Shown piece after piece: positions 1 to 9,416 of a stretch of DNA of 9,416 nucleotides. The position numbers and the translations under genes are program-made. The stretch spans positions 1 to 9,416 of the forward strand of contig CACXEB010000191.1 of the NCBI GenBank assembly GCA_902766515.1, given 5' to 3'. Positions within the stretch are counted from its first letter, which is position 1. Each line of letters starts with the position of its first letter. The notes beneath the pieces are model-generated. The model saw nothing but the letters and a program-made list of their open reading frames with translations, did no database searches and was not told the origin of the DNA. The DNA is from an uncultured Eubacteriales bacterium. GTDB lineage: Bacteria > Bacillota_A > Clostridia > Christensenellales > Aristaeellaceae.

Positions 1-214
1 AATCCGTTCCCCTCAGACGGAGCTGCGTGCCATGCCTGCTTTCAAAAACACCGTTCGGATCGGCACTGTATGCCCACACCTCCCCCTCCAGGCAGAGGCA
101 GGGCTGATCGATCTCCAGCGTTTCTGTCAACTCAATGCGATCAGCGGGCAGGCGGATCCGCCCGCTCCTCGGGCCAAGGCTTCTAATGCCTGGTACGATT
201 TCAGATGCTTTCAT
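1..214 (-). CDS. Probable right-handed parallel beta-helix protein, N-terminal part only
   Basis: An open frame of 71 codons begins at ATG 214-212 and leaves the window at position 1 without a stop. The start overlaps the stop of the preceding cysteine desulfidase-like gene as ATGA (211-214), which indicates translational coupling, and a GGGACGGA-like ribosome binding stretch lies just upstream. The peptide begins MKASEIVPGIRSLGPRSGRI and has no signal peptide. It continues with short alternating strands: RIRLPAD, ETLEID, LCLEGEVWAYSADPNG and TQLRLRG. Phrases such as 'I.LP...I.LTETLEID.P.LCLEGE.WAYS.DPNG.FE' are what I associate with pectate-lyase-like or glycoside-hydrolase-28-like beta-helix proteins of gut Clostridia, where such a segment starts the first helical turns. 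This is family recognition from memory; no catalytic residue is visible. The substrate is unknown and the lack of a signal peptide suggests a cytoplasmic protein. Confidence 0.65.
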   Translation of the reverse strand, partial: MKASEIVPGIRSLGPRSGRIRLPADRIELTETLEIDQPCLCLEGEVWAYSADPNGVFESRHGTQLRLRGTD

Positions 215-1512
215 TTCATTCCGTCCCTGCGCTTGTGCTCCGTCATCATGCTGATAATCTCGCGGTCCGTCTCCCGCATGCCGATCCGGCCCAGCCGGCT
301 GAAATTGGCGATGGAATTTCCCACCCCCTTCACCACCAGTCCGTCACCGTCGTAGAACTGCTGCCCGTTTTTATACATTTCATACCCGAAGATGCCCGTG
401 TCCACAGCGGTAGCGATCTTGGCAGCGCAGGAGGACTTGGCGCCGTCGCACACGATGCCGGAGGAGATGGCCAGCGCGTTGACGATGGTATGGGCAATAT
501 CCTTTTCATTGCCGCCAAAAAGGTAGGTGATGCCCGCGCCGGCCCCGGCCCCGGCGCAGATCGCGCCGCAGAAGGCGGACAGGCGTCCGATGCCGGCCTT
601 GGTGTGCAGCGTGACCAGGTTGGAGACCAGCAGCGCCCGGTACAGGGTCTCCTGATCCACGCGCAGCTCCTTCGCGTACTCAATCACCGGCAGGGAGGCC
701 GTCAGGCCCTGGTTGCCGCTGCCGGAACAGATCACGACCGGCAGCTCGCATCCGTTCATCCGGGCGTCTGAGCCCGCCGCGGCGACGGCGCGGGCACGGG
801 TCCGCACGTCATGACCGGTCGTCAGCAGCACTTTCCCGATGTTGGCGCCGTAATCGTGCCGGAGGCCTTCCTCCGCGATCGCGGTATTCATCCGGATCTG
901 GCGGTCGAGCAGCTCCTGCACATCCTTCGTGTCACAGGTGCGGGCAAAGTCATAGATGTCCCGCACGGTCAGCAGGCCGTCGTCCGCTTCATCCGCCGCC
1001 TCCGCCGGGGAGGACTGCGGCTCGTGCCGTTCAATGACCCTGCCGTCCTTTTCCGTCAGGACGATCTGCGTATGCCTGTCGGCGATACGGACCCGCGCAT
1101 ACGACGCGCCGCAGCGGACCGTGACGATCATGTCCAGCAGCTGTTCTGATTCCAGGGGCCGGACCTCGATGGGGGTCCGGGTCAGATAGTCGGCCAGCCG
1201 TTCCTTTGCCTCCGGCTGCACATGGGAAATGACCTGTAGCAGCGCGTTTTCATCCCCGCCCAGCACGCCGATGGCGACGGCGGCCGGGATGCCGCGCCGG
1301 CCGTCCGTATTGGGGACCACCACGCTCCGGACATTCTTGATGATGTTGCCGCTGGCCTCCACCAGGATGCGGTCCGGCAGCGCGCCCAGGAGAGCGCGGG
1401 CTTTGGCGGCGCAGTATGCCAGGGCGATCGGCTCCGTACATCCCATCGCGCAGACCAGCTCCCGCCTGAGAATACGCACATACGCCTGGTAGATCGTGCT
1501 GTCCCGCTCCAT
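211..1512 (-). CDS. cyuA: L-cysteine desulfidase / serine dehydratase alpha-like protein (UPF0597, YhaM/CyuA family)
   Basis: A 433-residue protein of the YhaM/CyuA family, close to the family's usual length. Characterised members are iron-sulfur lyases that break L-cysteine into pyruvate, ammonia and sulfide in the cytoplasm; related serine dehydratases act on L-serine. Visible family signatures are MGCTEPIALAYCAAKA near residue 23, PNTDGRRGIPAAVAIG near 67, CSGSGNQGLTASLPVIEYA near 262, KAGIGRLSAFCGAICAGAGAG near 305 and SSGIVCDGAKSSCAAKIATA near 350. Cysteines 25, 315, 319, 355 and 362 are candidate cluster ligands, but I cannot assign them exactly. I chose ATG 1512-1510 because TCCTTT on the plus strand (AAAGGA on the coding strand) lies 10 nt upstream and the protein then starts close to GCTEP, as in E. 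coli YhaM. An alternative ATG at 1539 would add 9 residues and overlap the thioesterase stop. The preceding thioesterase gene ends 19 nt upstream and the next gene overlaps by 4 nt, so all three are probably co-transcribed. Cysteine versus serine as substrate is not decidable here. Confidence 0.9.
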   Translation of the reverse strand: MERDSTIYQAYVRILRRELVCAMGCTEPIALAYCAAKARALLGALPDRILVEASGNIIKNVRSVVVPNTDGRRGIPAAVAIGVLGGDENALLQVISHVQPEAKERLADYLTRTPIEVRPLESEQLLDMIVTVRCGASYARVRIADRHTQIVLTEKDGRVIERHEPQSSPAEAADEADDGLLTVRDIYDFARTCDTKDVQELLDRQIRMNTAIAEEGLRHDYGANIGKVLLTTGHDVRTRARAVAAAGSDARMNGCELPVVICSGSGNQGLTASLPVIEYAKELRVDQETLYRALLVSNLVTLHTKAGIGRLSAFCGAICAGAGAGAGITYLFGGNEKDIAHTIVNALAISSGIVCDGAKSSCAAKIATAVDTGIFGYEMYKNGQQFYDGDGLVVKGVGNSIANFSRLGRIGMRETDREIISMMTEHKRRDGMK

Positions 1513-1531
1513 CGCGCACCCGTCCTTTCCC

Positions 1532-1954
1532 TTATTCATCCGTCGCAGGGTCCAGCAGCGCTTCGAGCGCCGCGCAGAACGCCGGCAGCTGCCGCTTCAG
1601 CCGGACGAAGTGGCCTTCCCGGTCCAGGAACACATGCTCGGACCGTCCTTCACAGATGACCGTCCCCTGCGCGCCGCGCATGGTATACCGAATGGCCAGC
1701 ACGACCCCGTTGAAGGACGCGACCGATACCTCAATGCTGACCGTGTCCCCGAAAGCGCTGGGATGCCGGTATTCACACGCGACCGACTTGACCGGCGACA
1801 GCACGCCCTCCGCTTCCATCCGGGCGTAGGGAAAGCCCAGCTGGTCCATGAAGTCAATCCGCGCCTCCTCCATCCAGCGGATATAGTTGGAATGATGGAC
1901 AACGCCCATCATGTCCGTCTCGTAATACTGTACCCGATGCAGATACGGCTTCAT
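1532..1954 (-). CDS. Acyl-CoA thioesterase, 4-hydroxybenzoyl-CoA thioesterase/YbgC-type hotdog protein
   Basis: A 140-residue single hotdog-domain protein predicted to hydrolyse an acyl-CoA thioester in the cytoplasm. The N-terminal signature is YYETDMMGVVHHSNYIRWME; Asp14 in 'ETD' corresponds to the catalytic aspartate of the 4HBT family, and the following helix (WMEEARIDFMDQLGFPY) and strands (CEYRHPSAFGDTVSIEV, GTVICEGRSEHVFLD) fit the fold. The length is normal for YbgC-type enzymes. The start at 1954 is set by a perfect AGGAGGT ribosome binding site (1960-1966) 5 nt upstream. A longer TTG start at 2014 would lie essentially at the predicted transcript start and adds an unconserved 20-residue leader, so I reject it. 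It is the first gene of a minus-strand unit with the cysteine desulfidase-like gene and the beta-helix gene. The acyl substrate cannot be predicted, and no Tol-Pal genes (the usual YbgC neighbours in Proteobacteria) are present. Confidence 0.88.
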   Translation of the reverse strand: MKPYLHRVQYYETDMMGVVHHSNYIRWMEEARIDFMDQLGFPYARMEAEGVLSPVKSVACEYRHPSAFGDTVSIEVSVASFNGVVLAIRYTMRGAQGTVICEGRSEHVFLDREGHFVRLKRQLPAFCAALEALLDPATDE

Positions 1955-1959
1955 CCGTG

Positions 1960-1966
1960 ACCTCCT
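1960..1966 (-). promoter_or_regulatory. Strong ribosome binding site of the thioesterase gene
   Basis: AGGAGGT on the minus strand, 5 nt before ATG 1954-1952. It decides the start against the longer TTG-initiated frame at 2014. Confidence 0.85.
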
Positions 1967-2021
1967 GATATGATGTTCGTTCCCTTCCGGGCAGGCGCAT
2001 GGAATTCCCGGCAACGCTTGT

Positions 2022-2050
2022 AATATACCACAGTTCAGGCAAAACCGCCA
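2022..2050 (-). promoter_or_regulatory. Predicted sigma-A promoter (extended -10) for the thioesterase operon
   Basis: On the minus strand, TATATT (2022-2027) is preceded directly by TGG (2028-2030), an extended -10 element. A poor -35 candidate, TGGCGG (2045-2050), sits 17 nt upstream, and an A6 tract (2054-2059) just beyond could serve as an UP-like element. Transcription would start near 2015, giving an untranslated leader of about 60 nt before the AGGAGGT site. Confidence 0.5.
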
Positions 2051-2061
2051 CCATTTTTTAT

Positions 2062-2084
2062 GTCATGGTTCCGTGAACAGTGAC
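2062..2084. promoter_or_regulatory. Imperfect palindrome between divergent promoters, possible operator
   Basis: Left arm GTCATGGTTC (2062-2071), 3-nt centre CGT, right arm GAACAGTGAC (2075-2084); 8 of 10 positions are complementary (GTCA..TGAC outside, GTTC..GAAC inside). T6 tracts lie on both sides (2054-2059 and 2085-2090, starts 31 bp apart). It lies between the two predicted promoters: about -47 to -69 for the minus-strand one and roughly 40 nt upstream of the -35 box of the plus-strand one. Together with the right-hand T6 it also resembles a weak plus-strand terminator, but no plus-strand gene lies upstream in the window. The cognate regulator is unknown. Confidence 0.35.
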
Positions 2085-2123
2085 TTTTTTACATCGTTTC
2101 AATACGGTTGGATGAGGTGCCAC

Positions 2124-2152
2124 TTGCCTTTCTCCGCGATTTCGGCTATACT
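2124..2152 (+). promoter_or_regulatory. Predicted sigma-A promoter for the dac-araM pair
   Basis: TTGCCT (2124-2129), a 17-nt spacer, then TATACT (2147-2152): a near-consensus housekeeping promoter with ideal spacing. Transcription should start near 2159, leaving a leader of about 63 nt before ATG 2222. I see no riboswitch-like fold in that leader. Confidence 0.6.
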
Positions 2153-2221
2153 GTTTGCGGCGCCGGTCCCACGCGGAAAAGCAGGGCGGACCCGACGCAG
2201 AACGAACTGAATGGGAGCTAT

Positions 2222-3670
2222 ATGACGCATTCACATACATCCCCGCTCACGCGGCTCGCGGCGCTGCTTTGCCTTCTCCTGCTGCTGGCCGCCGGCGGAA
2301 AACCGGCATTCGCGACCGGACAGCAGACCGACTATGATCCGAACTATCCGGAGGACCTGCGGCCTGAGCACCTGACCTGCTCCTCCGCCATCGTGGTGGA
2401 AGCGGAAAGCGGCGAGGTCATCTTCGAAAAGAACGCTGACAGCCGTATTTATCCCGCGTCCACGACGAAAATCATGACCATCTATCTCGGTCTGCTGGCA
2501 GGCGAACTGGACCGGGACGTCTTTGTCAGCGCCTCCGCCATGGACATCCCCGCCGACTCCTCCGTGATCCCGCTGAGCTACGGCGAGGTCCTGAAGTTCC
2601 GGGACGTTCTCTATTCGACCATGCTGATGTCCGGCAACGAAGGCGCCAATGTCATCGCCGAGACCGTCTCCGGTAACATCGACAATTTCGTAGCCCTGAT
2701 GAACGCCGCCGCCACGGATTTCGGCTGTACCGCGACGCATTTTGCCAACCCGCACGGCCTTTCGGACGATTGGCACTATTCCACCGCCCGCGACATGGCC
2801 AACCTGGCGCGCATCGCCATGCGGAACGAGACCTTCCGCGACATCGTCAGCCAGACGGAATACAGCATGCCGGCCGACAACATCTATAACGCCCGCACGC
2901 TGCGCACCAATAACCGTTTTCTCCGCAACGCGTCCGGCAATGAGGCCACCTATTACCCGGAAGGCATCGGCATCAAGACCGGCTTCACCAGCGCCGCGGG
3001 CTACTGCTACGTCGGCGCGGCGGTCCGGAACGGCGTCACGCTGATCTCCTGCGTCTACCACGCCTCCTCTGACGCCAACCGCTACATCGATACCATCAAG
3101 CTGCTCGAATACGGCTTCACCCAGTTCACGGGCGTCAGCATCGCCGAGCTGTACCGCCGGAACCCGCGCGTGGTGGATATCGCGCATTACGCGCAGGACG
3201 ACGCGAACCTGGGCAAGCTGACCCTCGCGCTGAACCAGATCAGCAGCGAAGGCAGCGACAAGATCGTCACGTCCGCCAGCAACATCGATTACCTGTCCCA
3301 TCACCTGAACGATATCACGATCACCGATTATACACGCGCCTTCAGCGCCCCGATCCAGGAGGGCGACGTGATGGGCACCATGACGTATTACGACGAGCAG
3401 GGCCTGCCGACCGTCTATGAGCTGCTGGCCACCCGCTCCATCGCGCGGCGTGAGCAGCTGTTCCCCACCATTGATGAGATCATCGCGATGACTATCAACG
3501 ATCCCAACCCATTCCCCCGCTTTACCGTTGAGTTTGCCCTGTTTTATATCATCCTGCCCCTGCTGCTCATCGTGCTGCTGATCCGGCTGATCCATCGGAT
3601 TCGCCACAGGAAAAACCGCCGGAAAAAGCGCATCCGGAACGTCGAGCCCCAGGAGAGATACTTCCAGTAA
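2222..3670 (+). CDS. D-alanyl-D-alanine carboxypeptidase, S11 family (low-molecular-weight PBP, DacF/PBP5-like), C-terminally anchored
   Basis: A 482-residue serine peptidase that removes the terminal D-Ala from peptidoglycan pentapeptides outside the membrane. All three penicillin-binding motifs are present: SxxK as Ser80-Thr-Thr-Lys83 within YPASTTKIMT, SxN as Ser137-Gly-Asn within MLMSGNEGANVIAE, and KTG at Lys252 within GIGIKTGFTSAAGY. A signal peptide (basic start, LAALLCLLLLLAAGG core) probably ends at AFA, residue 31. The catalytic domain spans roughly 50-300, followed by a beta-rich PBP5_C-like region. A membrane helix lies at about 439-458 (FALFYIILPLLLIVLLIRLI), followed by a tail very rich in Arg and Lys. 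This is a true transmembrane anchor rather than PBP5's amphipathic helix. ATG 2222 is chosen because the signal peptide starts there and GGGAG lies 4 nt upstream; the open frame back to 2108 is unlikely because it runs through the predicted promoter. The araM-like gene follows after 38 nt. Confidence 0.95.
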   Translation: MTHSHTSPLTRLAALLCLLLLLAAGGKPAFATGQQTDYDPNYPEDLRPEHLTCSSAIVVEAESGEVIFEKNADSRIYPASTTKIMTIYLGLLAGELDRDVFVSASAMDIPADSSVIPLSYGEVLKFRDVLYSTMLMSGNEGANVIAETVSGNIDNFVALMNAAATDFGCTATHFANPHGLSDDWHYSTARDMANLARIAMRNETFRDIVSQTEYSMPADNIYNARTLRTNNRFLRNASGNEATYYPEGIGIKTGFTSAAGYCYVGAAVRNGVTLISCVYHASSDANRYIDTIKLLEYGFTQFTGVSIAELYRRNPRVVDIAHYAQDDANLGKLTLALNQISSEGSDKIVTSASNIDYLSHHLNDITITDYTRAFSAPIQEGDVMGTMTYYDEQGLPTVYELLATRSIARREQLFPTIDEIIAMTINDPNPFPRFTVEFALFYIILPLLLIVLLIRLIHRIRHRKNRRKKRIRNVEPQERYFQ

Positions 3671-3694
3671 AAAAATTGTCACAGTACATCCATG

Positions 3695-3702
3695 AAGGAG
3701 GA
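3695..3702 (+). promoter_or_regulatory. Strong ribosome binding site of the araM-like gene
   Basis: AAGGAGGA lies 6 nt before ATG 3709. It fixes the start at 3709 rather than the in-frame ATG at 3676, which has no comparable site. Confidence 0.85.
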
Positions 3703-3708
3703 ACCGCC

Positions 3709-5076
3709 ATGCCGGACTTTGCCCATATGAAGCTCACGGAGCTTGTCCGCCCGCAGGGATTCGACTGCGCGTGCGGGCGTCGCCACGTCTGCGCCCTGCA
3801 GTACCTGAACATCGGCGCGGGCATTCTGGAGGACCTGCCGCATATGCTCAGCGCGCTGGGCGCCTCCCACCCCTTTGTCGTCTGCGACGCGAACACCTGG
3901 ACCGCAGCTGGTGAGCGGGTCTGCGAGCTGCTCAGCCGGGCCGGCGTCCGCTTTGACACCCACGTGATCCCCTGCCACGGCGACAAGGTCGCGCCGGCGG
4001 AATGGGCGGTAGGCAGCGTGATCATGCACCTGCCCGCGAAAGCCGACCTGATCCTCGGCGTGGGCAGCGGCGTCATCAACGACATCTGCAAGGTCACCGC
4101 CCACGCGACGCATCGGAAAAACGCAATTATCGGCACCGCCCCTTCGATGGACGGCTACGCTTCCAACAGCTCCTCCATGGAGGTTAACCAGGTCAAGGTG
4201 TCCCTGTACAACCAGGCCCCGTCCGGCATCCTGCTGGACACGGACATCCTTGCGAAGGCTCCGATGCGCATGCTCTGGGCCGGCCTGGGCGACATGGTCG
4301 CCAAGTATATCGCGCTGTGTGAATGGCGCATTTCCCATCTGGCAGCGGACGAATACTACTGCCCGGACATCGCGGACATGATGCGCGCGGCCCTGCGGCA
4401 GGTCATGGACGCCGCGCCGGGGCTGCCGAAGCGCGATCCGCGCGCCGTCCAGGCCATCGCCGAGGGCCTTGTTCTCGCCGGCGTCGCCATGGCGTATGCG
4501 GACATCTCCCGCCCTGCTTCCGGCCTGGAGCACTATTTTTCCCATATGTGGGAGATGATGGCGCTGGAGCGCGGACTGCCCTATGACCTGCATGGCATCC
4601 AGGTGGGCGTGGGCAGCCTGCTCACCCTGCGGCTCTATCCGGACATCCTGAAGATCACCCCGGACGCGAAACGCGCAAGGGAATGGTGGCGGCAGATGAC
4701 GCCGGAACGCTGGGAAGCGCAGATCCGGCACATCTTCGGGAAAACCGCGCCGGAGATCATCGTCCTCGAGCAGAAGGCGCACAAAAACGATCCTGCCCGG
4801 CACGAGCAGCGGCTTGCGCGGCTGACCGGCCAGTGGGACCGGGTTCAGAGAATCATCGGGGAAGAGCTGCCCGATTTCGAGCATATCCACGCTGTCATGG
4901 CCGGCGTCGGGATGCCGCTCACGCCGAAGGACATTGGCATCAGCACGGAGGACACCGTCAACGCGTTCGTCGGTTCCCGCGACCTGCGGGACAAGTACCT
5001 GACCTCCACCCTGCTGTGGGACCTGGGCCTGACGGACGAATACGCGGAAAAAGTAAGGGCGTTCGCCGCTGAATAA
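3709..5076 (+). CDS. araM: sn-glycerol-1-phosphate dehydrogenase, AraM/EgsA family
   Basis: A 455-residue protein of the iron-containing-alcohol-dehydrogenase-like superfamily, AraM/EgsA branch. Characterised members reduce dihydroxyacetone phosphate to sn-glycerol 1-phosphate with NAD(P)H; B. subtilis AraM uses Ni2+. The nucleotide-binding segment is GVGSGVINDICKVTAH (from residue 117), followed by the family hallmark GTAPSMDGYASNSSSM (from 142). Likely metal ligands by family pattern are Asp195 (GLGDMVAKY), His275 (GLEHYFSHMWEM) and His295 (YDLHGIQVG), all present. Near the N-terminus is a compact Cys/His motif, CACGRRHVC (Cys20, Cys22, His26, Cys28), outside the canonical fold. The length is slightly above B. 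subtilis AraM. It is probably co-transcribed with the upstream carboxypeptidase (38-nt gap, no internal promoter seen) and ends at a strong hairpin. No arabinose genes are nearby, so the symbol reflects the family and not the pathway. G1P could feed archaeal-type or polyprenylglyceryl lipids, or a cell-surface polymer; which one is unknown. Confidence 0.88.
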   Translation: MPDFAHMKLTELVRPQGFDCACGRRHVCALQYLNIGAGILEDLPHMLSALGASHPFVVCDANTWTAAGERVCELLSRAGVRFDTHVIPCHGDKVAPAEWAVGSVIMHLPAKADLILGVGSGVINDICKVTAHATHRKNAIIGTAPSMDGYASNSSSMEVNQVKVSLYNQAPSGILLDTDILAKAPMRMLWAGLGDMVAKYIALCEWRISHLAADEYYCPDIADMMRAALRQVMDAAPGLPKRDPRAVQAIAEGLVLAGVAMAYADISRPASGLEHYFSHMWEMMALERGLPYDLHGIQVGVGSLLTLRLYPDILKITPDAKRAREWWRQMTPERWEAQIRHIFGKTAPEIIVLEQKAHKNDPARHEQRLARLTGQWDRVQRIIGEELPDFEHIHAVMAGVGMPLTPKDIGISTEDTVNAFVGSRDLRDKYLTSTLLWDLGLTDEYAEKVRAFAAE

Positions 5077-5092
5077 ATGCTTCGATCCATAC

Positions 5093-5125
5093 GATGAAAG
5101 CCGCGGGGTCTCCGCGGCTTTCATC
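5093..5125. terminator. Bidirectional terminator between converging araM and TPR genes
   Basis: A perfect 14-bp stem (5093-5106 paired with 5112-5125) with a 5-nt GGTCT loop. The GC-rich core GCCGCGG/CCGCGGC is flanked by AAA and TTT, so it can act in both directions. There is no long U-tract after it. It sits 16 nt after the araM stop and 23 nt from the end of the TPR gene on the opposite strand. Confidence 0.8.
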
Positions 5126-5148
5126 ATAGGCATCGATACTGGCATCGA

Positions 5149-5847
5149 TTATTTCAGCTCGTCCAGCGCCTTCTGGATCATTTCCCGGTTGGCATAGTTG
5201 AGCGGGGAGAAACGGCCTTCGAGGGCCTTCTCCAGCTTCTCCCGGGCGGCCGCCCTGTCGCCGGCTTCGAGGTCATAACGGGAGAGGAAATACAGCGTCT
5301 CGATCTGGCTGTCCTTGATCTCCAGCGCCTTTTCGAAATAGGGGCGCGCCTTCTCCTTGTCGCCGATCACCCGGTAGTACATCTGGCCCAGGTTGTCCAG
5401 CACGATGGAGTCCTCATCATCATACTCCAGGGCTTCCTCATCGAAGGGAAGGCCCTTTTCGGCGTCCCCCGCTTCGACATACAGATAGCCCAGGGTCTGG
5501 TAGACCGTGCCGCACGGATTCTGGTGATGGGACGCTTCCAGCAGCTGGATGGCCTCCGCGAGGCGGCCGAGCTTGTACTGGGCGCAGGCGTAATTGACGT
5601 GGATCTCCGTCTTCTGCCGCGGGTTCAGGCCGGGCAGCTTTTCCACCCGGCGCAGGATTTCCTTGGCCTTTTCCGCTTCCGGCGCGCCGCCCTCCCGCAG
5701 CAGCAGGATCGTGTACGGGAGCAAGTAGGCCGCGTCCATGACGCCGGCCTCCCAGAGCTCTTCATACGCTTTGCGCGCGCCTGCCAGGTCGCCCTTGTTG
5801 TGCAGGGTCACCGCTTTCCTGACCTTCAGTGCATTCATCAAACCCAT
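5149..5847 (-). CDS. Tetratricopeptide-repeat protein
   Basis: A 232-residue, wholly helical-looking protein with no signal peptide or membrane segment. TPR-type helix pairs are visible: residues 8-33 (AVTLHNKGDLAGARKAYEEL), 84-106 (VNYACAQYKLGRLAEAIQLL), 114-141 (VYQTLGYLYVEAGDAEKGL), 148-176 (VLDNLGQMYYRVIGDKEKAR) and 184-210 (TLYFLSRYDLEAGDRAAARE). These carry the small residue (G or A) at the turn and the A-x-x-x-[YFL] pattern typical of TPRs. Such proteins act as scaffolds, so no biochemical role can be given. ATG 5847 is supported by AAAGGA 9 nt upstream, inside the end of the exonuclease gene; an in-frame ATG at 5838 is a weaker alternative. The gap to the exonuclease stop is only 6 nt, so the two are co-transcribed. 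The exonuclease also ends in TPR-like repeats, which makes a physical or functional link plausible. It is the last gene before the hairpin terminator. Confidence 0.8.
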   Translation of the reverse strand: MGLMNALKVRKAVTLHNKGDLAGARKAYEELWEAGVMDAAYLLPYTILLLREGGAPEAEKAKEILRRVEKLPGLNPRQKTEIHVNYACAQYKLGRLAEAIQLLEASHHQNPCGTVYQTLGYLYVEAGDAEKGLPFDEEALEYDDEDSIVLDNLGQMYYRVIGDKEKARPYFEKALEIKDSQIETLYFLSRYDLEAGDRAAAREKLEKALEGRFSPLNYANREMIQKALDELK

Positions 5848-5853
5848 CTGTCT

Positions 5854-6963
5854 TCATCCTTTCCTGTTCAAACGCTGGTAGCGCCTGTTGAGCGCCGCCA
5901 GTTCGTCCGGATCTTCCGTCAGCAGCATCGCGCGCCGCGTGAGCGCCAGCGCATCCTGCGGGCGGCCCAGCCGGTGCTCGTAGAGGATCGCGAGCCGTAC
6001 CATCGTCTGCACGGAGCCCTGTCCGTCCCGGAGCATCCGCTCGTACACCTCCGCGGCATGGCCGTAATCGGTACTTTTCCTGTAGTTTTCAGCCAGGCTG
6101 AGCCGGGCCAGCCTGGAAAGCCTGCCCCCGTCAGCGGCATGGTAGCATTTCCGCGCCCGCTCCATCTGGCCGCGTTTCTCCAGCACCCGGCCGATCGAAT
6201 AGATGTCCTCCTGCCAGGGAATGGACAGCGGGGCCTCGTACAGGCTGAGCATCCGGCTGAGCAAAAGCGGCATGGACCTGATATCCTGCAGGTTGTGCTC
6301 CAGGATGCGCTCGACCGGCCGGAAATCGCCGTCCTTCAGGTACTGGAACCAGACCCTGGGCACCTCGCTGCCCGGCAGGTCGTCCTCCCGGTGGATGTCG
6401 AGCACCGTCTCTTCCAGGCACGCCAGCCGGCAGCGCTGCAGCCGCAGCTTGAATACCGCCCGCGCGGGGTGCAGCAGGTCCAGGTGCGGCCGTTCTGTCA
6501 GGCGGACGCGCTTGCCGTTCATGGTCAGCCGGCTCTCGAGCAGGGGCACGTCGAAGGTCCGCCCGTTGAAGGTCACCAGCAGCTGCGACCGTTCGATCAG
6601 CGCCACGACCCGCTCCAGCATCGCCGGCTCCTCGGGATAATCGCGCATCAGGTCCTGCTCTACCACAAAGGTATCGCCCTCGAACCAGCCCAGGCCGGTC
6701 AGGAATGCGATCGTCCCCGCCCCGCCGGACAGGCCGGTGGTCTCCGTGTCGAGAAACAGCAGTCCCTCCAACGGCAGGTCGCCGTCCAGCTGAAGGCCGC
6801 TCATGCTGTGCAGCAGCGCCGCGTCCAGGTGATCCGGCAGGCCGTAGGCCGCCCTTTCCGTGCGGTTGGCGGTCCGATAGCATGCGGTCGGCGCCGCCGG
6901 CTGCTTTTCCGCCTGCCGTTCCTGGGAATGGTAGGCGTTCAGCCGTTCCCGCAGGCTGAGCAT
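5854..6963 (-). CDS. YprB-type ribonuclease H-like (DEDD) exonuclease with C-terminal TPR-like repeats
   Basis: A 369-residue predicted cytoplasmic 3'-5' exonuclease-fold protein of the YprB group (RNase_H_2). All acidic motifs of a DEDD nuclease are visible: Asp72 and Glu74 in LLFLDTETTGLSGGAGTI, Asp138 in LVTFNGRTFDVPLL, and His223...Asp227 in ILEHNLQDIRSMPLLL. A conserved linker HLDLLHPAR lies at about 160-168. From about residue 256 to the end, helix pairs such as IGRVLEKRGQMERARKCYHA, HAAEVYERMLRDGQG and AILYEHRLGRPQDALALTRR look like TPRs, an arrangement also known in B. subtilis YprB. The substrate (DNA or RNA) is not established by sequence. ATG 6963 follows the TGA of the preceding VanY gene by one base and I see no Shine-Dalgarno sequence within the usual distance, so translation is probably coupled. 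The open frame continues upstream to 7245, but that stretch overlaps the VanY reading frame and is not protein-like. Confidence 0.85.
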   Translation of the reverse strand: MLSLRERLNAYHSQERQAEKQPAAPTACYRTANRTERAAYGLPDHLDAALLHSMSGLQLDGDLPLEGLLFLDTETTGLSGGAGTIAFLTGLGWFEGDTFVVEQDLMRDYPEEPAMLERVVALIERSQLLVTFNGRTFDVPLLESRLTMNGKRVRLTERPHLDLLHPARAVFKLRLQRCRLACLEETVLDIHREDDLPGSEVPRVWFQYLKDGDFRPVERILEHNLQDIRSMPLLLSRMLSLYEAPLSIPWQEDIYSIGRVLEKRGQMERARKCYHAADGGRLSRLARLSLAENYRKSTDYGHAAEVYERMLRDGQGSVQTMVRLAILYEHRLGRPQDALALTRRAMLLTEDPDELAALNRRYQRLNRKG

Positions 6964-6964
6964 C

Positions 6965-7306
6965 TCAATGGAACAGGGAGATTTCCTCTTCTCCCTCCTC
7001 CGTGACAAACAGCACCTCCACCGGGCTCGGGACCGCGCGCTGCCGGAGCAGCTCTTTGAAATTGCCGCCGCGGGCTTCCCAGTCCTCGATGTATCGGTGC
7101 CATTCCTCGTCAAACTCCTCGAGCGACAGGTGCTGCTCCATGATATACCGGGCCGCTTCCTCCCCGACGTACCGGAGGTGCCACGGCTCGTAGATGATCC
7201 CGGTGATACTCTCCTTATCCTCCATATAGCGGATGATGAAGCCATACTCCGCGCAGTGCGCGTCCATCCACTGGGCCTCGGCGGTCTGGGCGAAGGCCGG
7301 CGTCAT
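6965..7306 (-). CDS. C-terminal fragment of the interrupted VanY gene (possible reinitiation product)
   Basis: The first ATG after the TAG, in the same frame, is at 7306; it would give 113 residues starting MTPAFAQTAEAQWMDAHCAE. AAAGGA at 7311-7316 lies 4 nt upstream, so reinitiation is conceivable. The fragment holds YEPWHLRYVG (the catalytic Glu and one zinc His) but lacks the other two zinc ligands and a signal peptide, so it would be inactive and cytoplasmic. Its possible value is to carry ribosomes to the TGA at 6965-6967, next to the coupled start of the exonuclease gene. It is part of the gene at 6965-7777 and is listed separately only because it may be translated by itself. Confidence 0.35.
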   Translation of the reverse strand: MTPAFAQTAEAQWMDAHCAEYGFIIRYMEDKESITGIIYEPWHLRYVGEEAARYIMEQHLSLEEFDEEWHRYIEDWEARGGNFKELLRQRAVPSPVEVLFVTEEGEEEISLFH

Positions 7307-7378
7307 GCCGTCCTTTTTCGTCCAGGCCAGGTTCAGGATGTCGGCTCCAAGGCCGGTCTGGTGGTCGCTGGAGCCCGG

Positions 7379-7381
7379 CTA
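7379..7381 (-). other. In-frame TAG codon before the VanY zinc motif
   Basis: The coding strand reads GTC GCC TAG CCG GGC here, against GTC GCC TGG CCG GGC in the intact paralogue (plus-strand 8071-8085). The two 15-nt stretches differ at one base, G to A on the coding strand at 7380. All ten other stop codons in the window are TGA or TAA. Confidence 0.95.
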
Positions 7382-7777
7382 GGCGACCACGCCGTCATCG
7401 CGGCCCACCTTGTCCAGACGGTTGTTGTACATGTACTTCTGGGTCGAATAGGCGCGGTAGACGCTCTTCAGGTAGAGGATCATCCCGTCCTCCTCCGCGG
7501 CAGCGAACATGCGCCGCATGGCGTTCAGGCACGTCTTGCGCAGCTTATCGCCCCGGATGGAGGGTACGCAGCGCACGTCGATCACCGTCAGGTCATAGGG
7601 TTCATAATCGCTGTCCAGGAGATGGGTCCGGTTGACCAGCGTGATAAAGCCTGACCGGTTCTCCAGGATCTCCGGCTCCAGCGGATAGTCCCACGCGGGC
7701 ATTCCGCCCTCTTCCGCACAAGCCGCGGCGGCCGCCAAAAGCAACATCAGCACGATCCAGATCCATCCGCGCTTCAT
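7379..7777 (-). CDS. N-terminal fragment of the interrupted VanY gene (signal peptide and substrate-binding region)
   Basis: This is the part that would be translated if the TAG is read as stop: 132 residues. It starts MKRGWIWIVLMLLLAAAAAC, a clear export signal; cleavage after ACA is possible, and AAAC is a weak lipobox. It includes the substrate-binding stretch LKSVYRAYSTQKYMYNN but ends at GRDDGVVA, one codon before the zinc site. The fragment therefore has no zinc ligand and cannot be an active carboxypeptidase. It starts behind a strong AAGGAGG site (7784-7790) and overlaps the preceding stop by 4 nt, so it should be well translated. Confidence 0.6.
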   Translation of the reverse strand: MKRGWIWIVLMLLLAAAAACAEEGGMPAWDYPLEPEILENRSGFITLVNRTHLLDSDYEPYDLTVIDVRCVPSIRGDKLRKTCLNAMRRMFAAAEEDGMILYLKSVYRAYSTQKYMYNNRLDKVGRDDGVVA

Positions 7778-8442
7778 TCCATACCTCCTTCGTCCGCCAC
7801 TGCTCTCAGCAGGTCGATGTATTCCTCAAACGGGATGTCCAGCGCCTGGATCCGCTGCGCGTGCTCCACGCCGACATACCTGATATGCCACGGCTCATAG
7901 GCGTAACCGGTGGTTTCCGTCCATTCCTGCTTGTAGCGCAGGATGAACCCGAACCGATAGCAGTTTTCCGCCAGCCACTTCCCTTCCGGCGTATTGCCGA
8001 AGGAGGCCCTCAGGCTGCTGTTAGTCCGGCGTCCCACGTCCATGGCAAGCCCCAGCTGATGCTCGCTTGCGCCCGGCCAGGCGACATACAGGTCCGCTTT
8101 GGCCTTCCCGGCGTTTTTGACCCTGCGGTTATAGATGTTCAGCTGCGTCTGATAGCTCCTGAAGCCGGACACGGCAGTCAGGGTATAATTCTTCTCCGCC
8201 TTCGCGGCGTCAAACAGCTCTTCCAGCGCTTCCGCCGCCTCCCGCCGCATCAGGACCGAGCTGCTGGTACGCTTGACGTTCGGCATCACCAGGTCTTCCG
8301 GCACATAGTCAGCCGTCAGCCGGTACTGGCGGTTGACCAGGAACAGGGTGCCGCCCAGGGACAACTGGTCCTCCTGCACGGTGATGACGCCCTGGCCCAT
8401 GGACAGGAGCGTCAGCAGAAGCGCCAGTGTTTTTTTCAGCAT
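7774..8442 (-). CDS. VanY-type D-alanyl-D-alanine carboxypeptidase (peptidase M15B), intact copy
   Basis: A 222-residue predicted secreted zinc D,D-carboxypeptidase that removes terminal D-Ala from peptidoglycan precursors or cross-bridges. A signal peptide (MLKKTLALLLTLLSMGQG) is followed by a LVNRQYRLTADYVPEDL segment, the substrate-binding SGFRSYQTQLNIYN motif (92-105), and the SxHxxGxAxD zinc motif as Ser126-Glu-His128-Gln-Leu-Gly-Leu-Ala-Met-Asp135 within YVAWPGASEHQLG. The ExxH motif is Glu183-Pro-Trp-His186 within YEPWHIRYVG. All family residues are present. GGAAGGG lies 6 nt before ATG 8442. The gene starts 18 nt after ftsQ and its TGA overlaps the ATG of the second VanY gene (ATGA, 7774-7777), a tandem arrangement. 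Without vanH, vanA or vanX-like neighbours and inside a division cluster, a housekeeping wall-maturation role is more likely than glycopeptide resistance. Confidence 0.93.
   Translation of the reverse strand: MLKKTLALLLTLLSMGQGVITVQEDQLSLGGTLFLVNRQYRLTADYVPEDLVMPNVKRTSSSVLMRREAAEALEELFDAAKAEKNYTLTAVSGFRSYQTQLNIYNRRVKNAGKAKADLYVAWPGASEHQLGLAMDVGRRTNSSLRASFGNTPEGKWLAENCYRFGFILRYKQEWTETTGYAYEPWHIRYVGVEHAQRIQALDIPFEEYIDLLRAVADEGGME
7784..7790 (-). promoter_or_regulatory. Strong ribosome binding site of the second VanY gene
   Basis: AAGGAGG on the minus strand, 6 nt before ATG 7777-7775 and inside the last codons of the intact VanY gene. It argues that the broken gene is still set up for efficient initiation. 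Confidence 0.8.
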
Positions 8443-8460
8443 AGTCCGCCCTTCCGCGCG

Positions 8461-9416
<956 letters not shown>

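What the first reader, a model, noticed from the sequence alone, without database searches (positions are those of the whole stretch)
7379..7381. Single amber codon splits an otherwise perfect VanY carboxypeptidase exactly before its zinc motif
Seen directly: the frame is continuous over 270 codons except for TAG at 7379-7381. The next residues are PGSSDHQTGLGAD, the zinc-binding motif. The adjacent intact paralogue has TGG in a 15-nt context that is otherwise identical, so one G-to-A change accounts for the stop. No other damage is present. Either this strain has just lost the enzyme, the TAG is decoded (suppressor tRNA or readthrough), or the base is wrong.
Basis: partly seen in the sequence, partly recalled or inferred. 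Interest (0 to 1): 0.72.

Follow-up and report, generated by a model that had tools for sequence, protein, structure and literature searches.

The report
Broken cell-wall enzyme gene, probably private
One copy of an ordinary cell-wall trimming enzyme gene in an uncultured bacterium is cut short by a stop signal that the relatives examined, including a near-identical protein, do not have, so it is most likely an ordinary lost gene or a sequencing error rather than a new way of reading the code.

Summary
The amber codon is really in the record (minus strand, 7381-7379) and is the only stop inside a 270-codon frame; eight other genes checked have none. All three zinc-ligand positions lie after it, so the 132-residue product cannot be an active M15/VanY-type peptidase (inference). 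Orthologues carry a tyrosine codon in 32 of 35 distinct loci, other sense codons in 3, a stop in none; the paralogue's family mostly has Val, Pro or Leu there. Database protein P0017 spans the frame, matches the pieces at 132/132 and 136/137 residues and has Tyr at the stop, so an intact allele of very probably the same species exists. Eight relatives have release factor 1, none PylS above cut-off; one tRNA pattern in four relatives gave no CUA candidate. Best reading: a recent strain-private nonsense allele of a duplicated, probably dispensable peptidoglycan carboxypeptidase, possibly polar on the next gene. A sequence error is the main rival and cannot be excluded without reads. Readthrough is very unlikely. 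Ordinary; low interest.

The parts
7379..7381 (-). In-frame amber codon, codon 133 of a 270-codon frame
7382..7777 (-). N-terminal piece of the second M15/VanY-type peptidase (vanYb, my name): hydrophobic N-terminus that looks like a signal peptide (by eye), plus the first third of PF02557; no zinc ligand
   Evidence: PF02557 29.1 bits, profile 3-46
6965..7378 (-). C-terminal piece of vanYb behind the stop, with all three zinc-ligand positions, ending in TGA 6965-6967; first in-frame ATG, GTG or TTG at codon 158, after the first two ligand positions
   Evidence: (PF02557 78.1 bits, profile 61-131)
7774..8442 (-). Intact paralogue vanYa (my name; 222 aa, PF02557 146.4 bits); its TGA overlaps the ATG of vanYb
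5854..6963 (-). Downstream gene, RNase_H_2 exonuclease-like with TPR-like repeats; its ATG lies 1 nt after the vanYb stop, so its translation may depend on translation through vanYb (inference)
8461..9303 (-). FtsQ-like POTRA protein, upstream gene of the same row

Best explanation
The window comes from an uncultured Clostridia bacterium related to ruminant-gut genomes (inferred from the record titles of relatives) and carries a recent, strain-private nonsense allele in the second of two tandem M15/VanY-type (LdcB/YodJ-like) peptidoglycan carboxypeptidase genes. Shown: the stop is in the sequence, relatives are intact through the site, and an otherwise near-identical full-length protein exists. 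Inferred: translation ends at codon 133; the short exported product has no zinc ligand and is inactive or degraded; the intact tandem paralogue and an S11-type carboxypeptidase in the same window cover for the loss; and translation of the next gene, which starts 1 nt after the normal stop, may be lowered (polarity).
For: Single TAG in a frame with no other damage. 35 of 35 distinct orthologous loci have a sense codon there, tyrosine in 32. P0017, 270 aa, is identical to the N piece at 132/132 and to the C piece at 136/137, with Tyr at the stop. The paralogue has a database protein differing at 3 of 222 residues (P0126), so variants of this species are sampled. None of the 5 proteins found with the N piece is another copy of this truncated product (best 59% identity). 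Zinc ligands by analogy with LdcB (His, Asp, His; passages of PMC4087270) all lie after the stop. A yodJ single mutant of B. subtilis had no obvious phenotype in vegetative growth (same passages).
Against: A sequence error would look the same; no reads, coverage or second copy of this allele are available, and no whole genome is held for the window. The N-piece search does not list even the window's own truncated product, so the allele rests on one sequence. Loss of activity, redundancy and polarity are inferred, not measured.
Confidence: 0.62

Rival explanations
1. The stop is a consensus or sequencing error, or a mixture of strains collapsed into one contig, and the gene is intact in the organism.
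For: No genome is held for the window, so it may be a metagenome-type record. The only anomaly is one codon, and a near-identical intact protein is in the databases. 104 of 2421 possible single substitutions in the 269 sense codons of the two pieces make a stop, so about 1 in 23 random errors would do it.
Against: No internal stop in the eight other genes checked, so the record is not generally error-ridden. This does not exclude one error.
Confidence: 0.34
2. The amber codon is decoded (suppressor tRNA, reassigned code or pyrrolysine) and the full-length enzyme is made.
For: The frame continues unspoiled after the stop, as a decoded stop would require.
Against: Release factor 1 over cut-off in 8 of 8 relatives. 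PylS over cut-off in 0 of 8 (weak matches in 7 of 8). One CUA-anticodon pattern in 4 relatives gave 3 hits (the backward control gave 8), each at a tRNA-Arg(UCU) gene. No other in-frame TAG in 9 window genes. TAG is a rare but used terminator: 2 of the 29 orthologues tallied end in TAG, and 1 of 59 ORFs in L001-L005. No stop at this site in 35 of 35 orthologous loci. The window's own tRNAs could not be searched.
Confidence: 0.02
3. The gene has become two genes: a short secreted N-terminal protein and a separately started C-terminal protein, each kept by selection.
For: Both pieces are open and hardly differ from P0017. Three of the 5 proteins found with the N piece are short (148-161 aa).
Against: No ATG, GTG or TTG in the C piece before codon 158, after two of three zinc-ligand positions. 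The 5 N-piece relatives all run through the PG.S.H site; P0004 and P0005 then leave the family sequence, like frameshifts, and P0002 ends in it on an 840-base contig (read by eye).
Confidence: 0.02

Closest known systems
M15B peptidases of the VanY Pfam family PF02557, LdcB/YodJ type (PDB 4ox3, putative carboxypeptidase YodJ)
   Same: The near-identical intact protein P0017 matches YodJ at 7.9e-41 over residues 36-229, with Tyr-Pro-Gly-x-Ser-x-His-Gln-Thr-Gly and EPWH stretches in both
   Different: In the window the frame is stopped right before this stretch; the NCBIfam LdcB cut-off is not reached (C piece 73.1 and paralogue 111.6 of 275 bits); substrate (L,D or D,D) not tested
Vancomycin-resistance VanY / VanXY groups (NCBIfam NF000472, NF000473, NF000380)
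   Same: Same domain family
   Different: Below the curated cut-offs (C piece 66.7 of 425, 58.2 of 400, 93.3 of 250; intact paralogue 115.3, 102, 140.6); the neighbours identified in the window are an FtsQ-like protein, an exonuclease-like protein and a TPR protein, not van genes
Ordinary bacterial nonsense pseudogenes (general knowledge)
   Same: One private stop, intact alleles in relatives, related function nearby
   Different: No further decay seen; could instead be a sequence error

Membership tests
PF02557 / M15B (VanY, LdcB, YodJ type) peptidase | VanY domain profile match | tested here: met
   Both pieces over the Pfam cut-off of 25: 29.1 bits (profile 3-46) and 78.1 bits (profile 61-131)
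PF02557 / M15B (VanY, LdcB, YodJ type) peptidase | Three zinc ligands (His, Asp, His) plus catalytic Glu in the translated product | tested here: not met
   Ligand positions 139, 146, 200 and Glu 197 lie after codon 133; encoded, but behind the stop
LdcB (NCBIfam NF041194) | Curated score cut-off | tested here: not met
   Paralogue 111.6 and C piece 73.1 of 275 bits; for the broken gene only pieces were scored
Resistance VanY/VanXY groups | Curated NCBIfam score cut-off | tested here: not met
   Intact paralogue 115.3 of 425, 102 of 400 and 140.6 of 250 bits; C piece lower. For the broken gene only pieces were scored, so there the test is weak
Resistance VanY/VanXY groups | Neighbouring van ligase, dehydrogenase or regulator genes | tested here: not met
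   None among the nine window proteins scanned; beyond the window not looked for
Reassigned or suppressed TAG | RF1 absent or TAG frequent inside genes | tested here: not met
   RF1 in 8 of 8 relatives; 1 internal TAG in 9 window genes. Own genome not held
Reassigned or suppressed TAG | CUA-anticodon tRNA | tested here: inconclusive
   None found with one pattern in 4 relatives; tRNAs departing from the pattern would be missed, no positive control was run, and the window's genome is not available
Reassigned or suppressed TAG | Stop conserved at the same site in relatives | tested here: not met
   0 of 35 distinct loci
Nonsense pseudogene | Orthologues intact through the site | tested here: met
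   35 of 35 loci; P0017
Nonsense pseudogene | Stop present in the organism's DNA, not only in the record | not testable with these tools
   No reads available

The most novel reading that the evidence does not exclude
In this strain the amber codon is partly read as an amino acid (tyrosine would suit) by a suppressor tRNA or by leaky termination, so that one of two tandem wall carboxypeptidases is made at a low, tunable level together with its perhaps translationally coupled exonuclease neighbour.
Probability: 0.02. Interest if true: 0.4.

Novelty: already known. Interest (0 to 1): 0.07.

Why it matters
It matters little beyond this gene. It shows that a paralogue next door is a poor guide to what a broken gene used to encode; orthologues give another answer. 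It also shows that a lone stop in such a record should be checked against near-identical proteins before recoding is considered. If real, it is one more case of loss of a duplicated wall peptidase, with a possible polar effect on the next gene.

Tried and rejected
Orthologues of this gene mostly have tyrosine; the tryptophan in the paralogue is shared with its three nearest database relatives only (P0126-P0128, 3 of the 120 listed).

Rejected: stops recurring at this place in the family. In one search (300 family genomes drawn from a larger group, 193 with a match at E <= 1e-40) 11 of the listed rows had 'stops inside'. I fetched those 11 stretches. In each the frame ends 101-118 residues after the motif, which I read as the natural end of a shorter subgroup. 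The listing was cut, so weaker matches were not seen. The 73 listed rows with E <= 2.8e-77 (counted by eye) show no stop inside.

Against a clean picture: of the 5 proteins found with the N piece, P0004 and P0005 look frameshifted soon after the motif (read by eye), so broken or badly assembled copies of such genes do occur elsewhere.

Rejected: pyrrolysine or recoding. Led nowhere: viral contigs (11 stretches, none a relative); tRNA and Rfam scans of the window (no hit); paper searches on nonsense alleles (listing of 10 only, none) and on VanY/LdcB with five terms (none). (listing) led to PMC4087270, of which I saw passages only. (Aristaeella, rumen) followed a guess from memory about the lineage; only the listing was seen and it is not used as evidence.

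In one search loci with minus-strand matches were read on the wrong strand for the codon table; this was redone. One search's tally counts 29 of 30 loci; the thirtieth (L051) was missed by a filter of mine but is printed with TAT. The 30 loci are those fetched among the best 31 rows; the second G291 row was not fetched.

Full report
The stop is real in the record. The minus strand reads TAG at 7381-7379, inside a frame of 270 codons from ATG at 7777 to TGA at 6965-6967. The eight other genes I delimited have no internal stop; genes cut by the window's ends were not checked. The two open pieces both match Pfam VanY (PF02557), the N piece at profile positions 3-46 and the C piece at 61-131. No Rfam family at gathering score and no tRNA lies in the window.

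No genome is held for the window, so I used relatives. A scan of genome contigs with the C piece gave 13 loci, all from metagenome-assembled Clostridia; 6 of the 13 titles name goat or sheep gut samples. The closest is 89% identical over 136 residues. Ruminant-gut origin of the window is an inference from this. All 13 frames run through the site: TAT in 11, ATG in 1, AAG in 1. A second set, 30 loci of the best 31 matches in a search of 300 family genomes, also runs through in 30 of 30: TAT 25, TAC 3, ATG 1, TTT 1 (one of these, L051, is printed but missing from the script's own tally of 29).

Among proteins, the search with the L001 orthologue listed its best 120 of 1969. At this place 113 have Tyr (112 by script, plus P0042, missed by the script's pattern and read by eye), 5 Phe and 2 Ala. 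One of them, P0017 (270 aa; cluster of 10 sequences, 2 contigs), equals the N piece at 132 of 132 residues and the C piece at 136 of 137, with Tyr at the stop. Only the cluster's representative was seen; that it is the same species is inferred from the identity. The search with the N piece found 5 proteins among 24 candidates, the best 59% identical, none of them another copy of this truncated product. Three of the five are short (148-161 aa); all run through the motif, and two then look frameshifted (by eye), so other broken or badly assembled genes of this kind exist.

This overturns the proposed history. In the paralogue's own family this residue is free: of the 120 listed of 6727 homologues V 40, P 38, L 34, W 3, R 2, D 2, A 1. 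Tryptophan is shared by the window's paralogue, P0126 (3 differences in 222) and two others, so it is a trait of that gene in this lineage. The parsimonious ancestor of the stop codon is a tyrosine codon; B. subtilis YodJ, the best solved-structure match (4ox3, 7.9e-41), also has Tyr there (organism from PMC4087270 passages). I take the near-identity of the two 15-nt contexts as a coincidence of two related motifs.

Function. LdcB enzymes bind zinc with His, Asp and His, and the B. subtilis yodJ single mutant had no obvious phenotype in vegetative growth (passages of PMC4087270). By alignment with YodJ and by counting the ligand positions here are 139, 146 and 200 and the catalytic Glu 197; the spacings fit those given for BsLdcB (185, 192, 244) allowing the 2-residue gap in the alignment. 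All follow codon 133, so the translated product cannot be this enzyme (inference). The first possible start in the C piece is at codon 158, so a reinitiated product would lack two ligands. An intact paralogue (146.4 bits) and an S11-type carboxypeptidase (169.4 bits) remain in the window. Whether the natural enzyme cuts D,D or L,D bonds was not tested. By score it is not a curated resistance VanY or VanXY, nor does it reach the curated LdcB cut-off (pieces and paralogue scored).

Neighbourhood. The row FtsQ-like, vanYa, vanYb, exonuclease, TPR is found in L001-L004. In the window and in L001-L004 the exonuclease ATG starts 1 nt after the vanYb stop; in the five other loci printed (L005-L009) the spacing differs, and in L007-L012 the exonuclease lies about 0.9 kb further on. 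I see no well-placed Shine-Dalgarno sequence of its own in the window (by eye), so translational coupling is plausible and the early stop may be polar on the exonuclease. This is inference.

Recoding. Relatives have release factor 1 over cut-off in 8 of 8 and PylS over cut-off in 0 of 8; weak PylS matches in 7 of 8 are of a kind that also rings in 13 of 14 control genomes. One CUA-anticodon tRNA pattern in 4 genomes gave three hits, fewer than the 8 of its backward control; ARAGORN calls a tRNA-Arg(UCU) at the place of each hit. A CUA tRNA departing from the pattern would be missed. TAG ends some genes: 2 of 29 orthologues and 1 of 59 ORFs of 150 codons or more in L001-L005. It ends 0 of 9 window genes. 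The window's own tRNA set could not be searched.

Mutation or error. Both fit. For a mutation: the record is otherwise clean where checked, and variants of this species are visible in P0126 and P0017. For an error: one sequence, no reads, and 104 of 2421 single substitutions in the two pieces create a stop. I put the mutation at about 0.62 and the error at about 0.34, as judgement. Either way the finding is ordinary.

Noticed in passing
window 211-5076: The left half is not next to the ftsQ-vanY row in most relatives: the SDH_alpha-type and thioesterase-like proteins match none of the 13 loci, the Fe-ADH_2 protein is beside it only in L003 and L004, and the S11 peptidase has only weak (30-33%) matches in L005, L009 and L012 (some loci are short or end nearby).
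   Followed up: partly
window 3709-5073 +: Fe-ADH_2 protein whose best NCBIfam match is glycerol-1-phosphate dehydrogenase, 196.4 of a 413-bit cut-off; a relative of an archaeal-type lipid enzyme (recalled) in a bacterium, role unknown here.
   Followed up: no
window 3679-5145 -, 2231-3682 -, 7861-9414 +, 5524-7005 +: Very long open frames (483-518 codons) opposite the evident genes, probably a by-product of high G+C codon use.
   Followed up: no
L052-L062: A subgroup of this VanY-domain family among the family genomes ends earlier: stops of all three kinds 101-118 residues after the motif, against 135-142 in the orthologues.
   Followed up: yes
P0004, P0005: Two distant relatives of the N piece (48% identical) leave the family sequence just after the PG.S.H motif, like frameshifted copies.
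   Followed up: no
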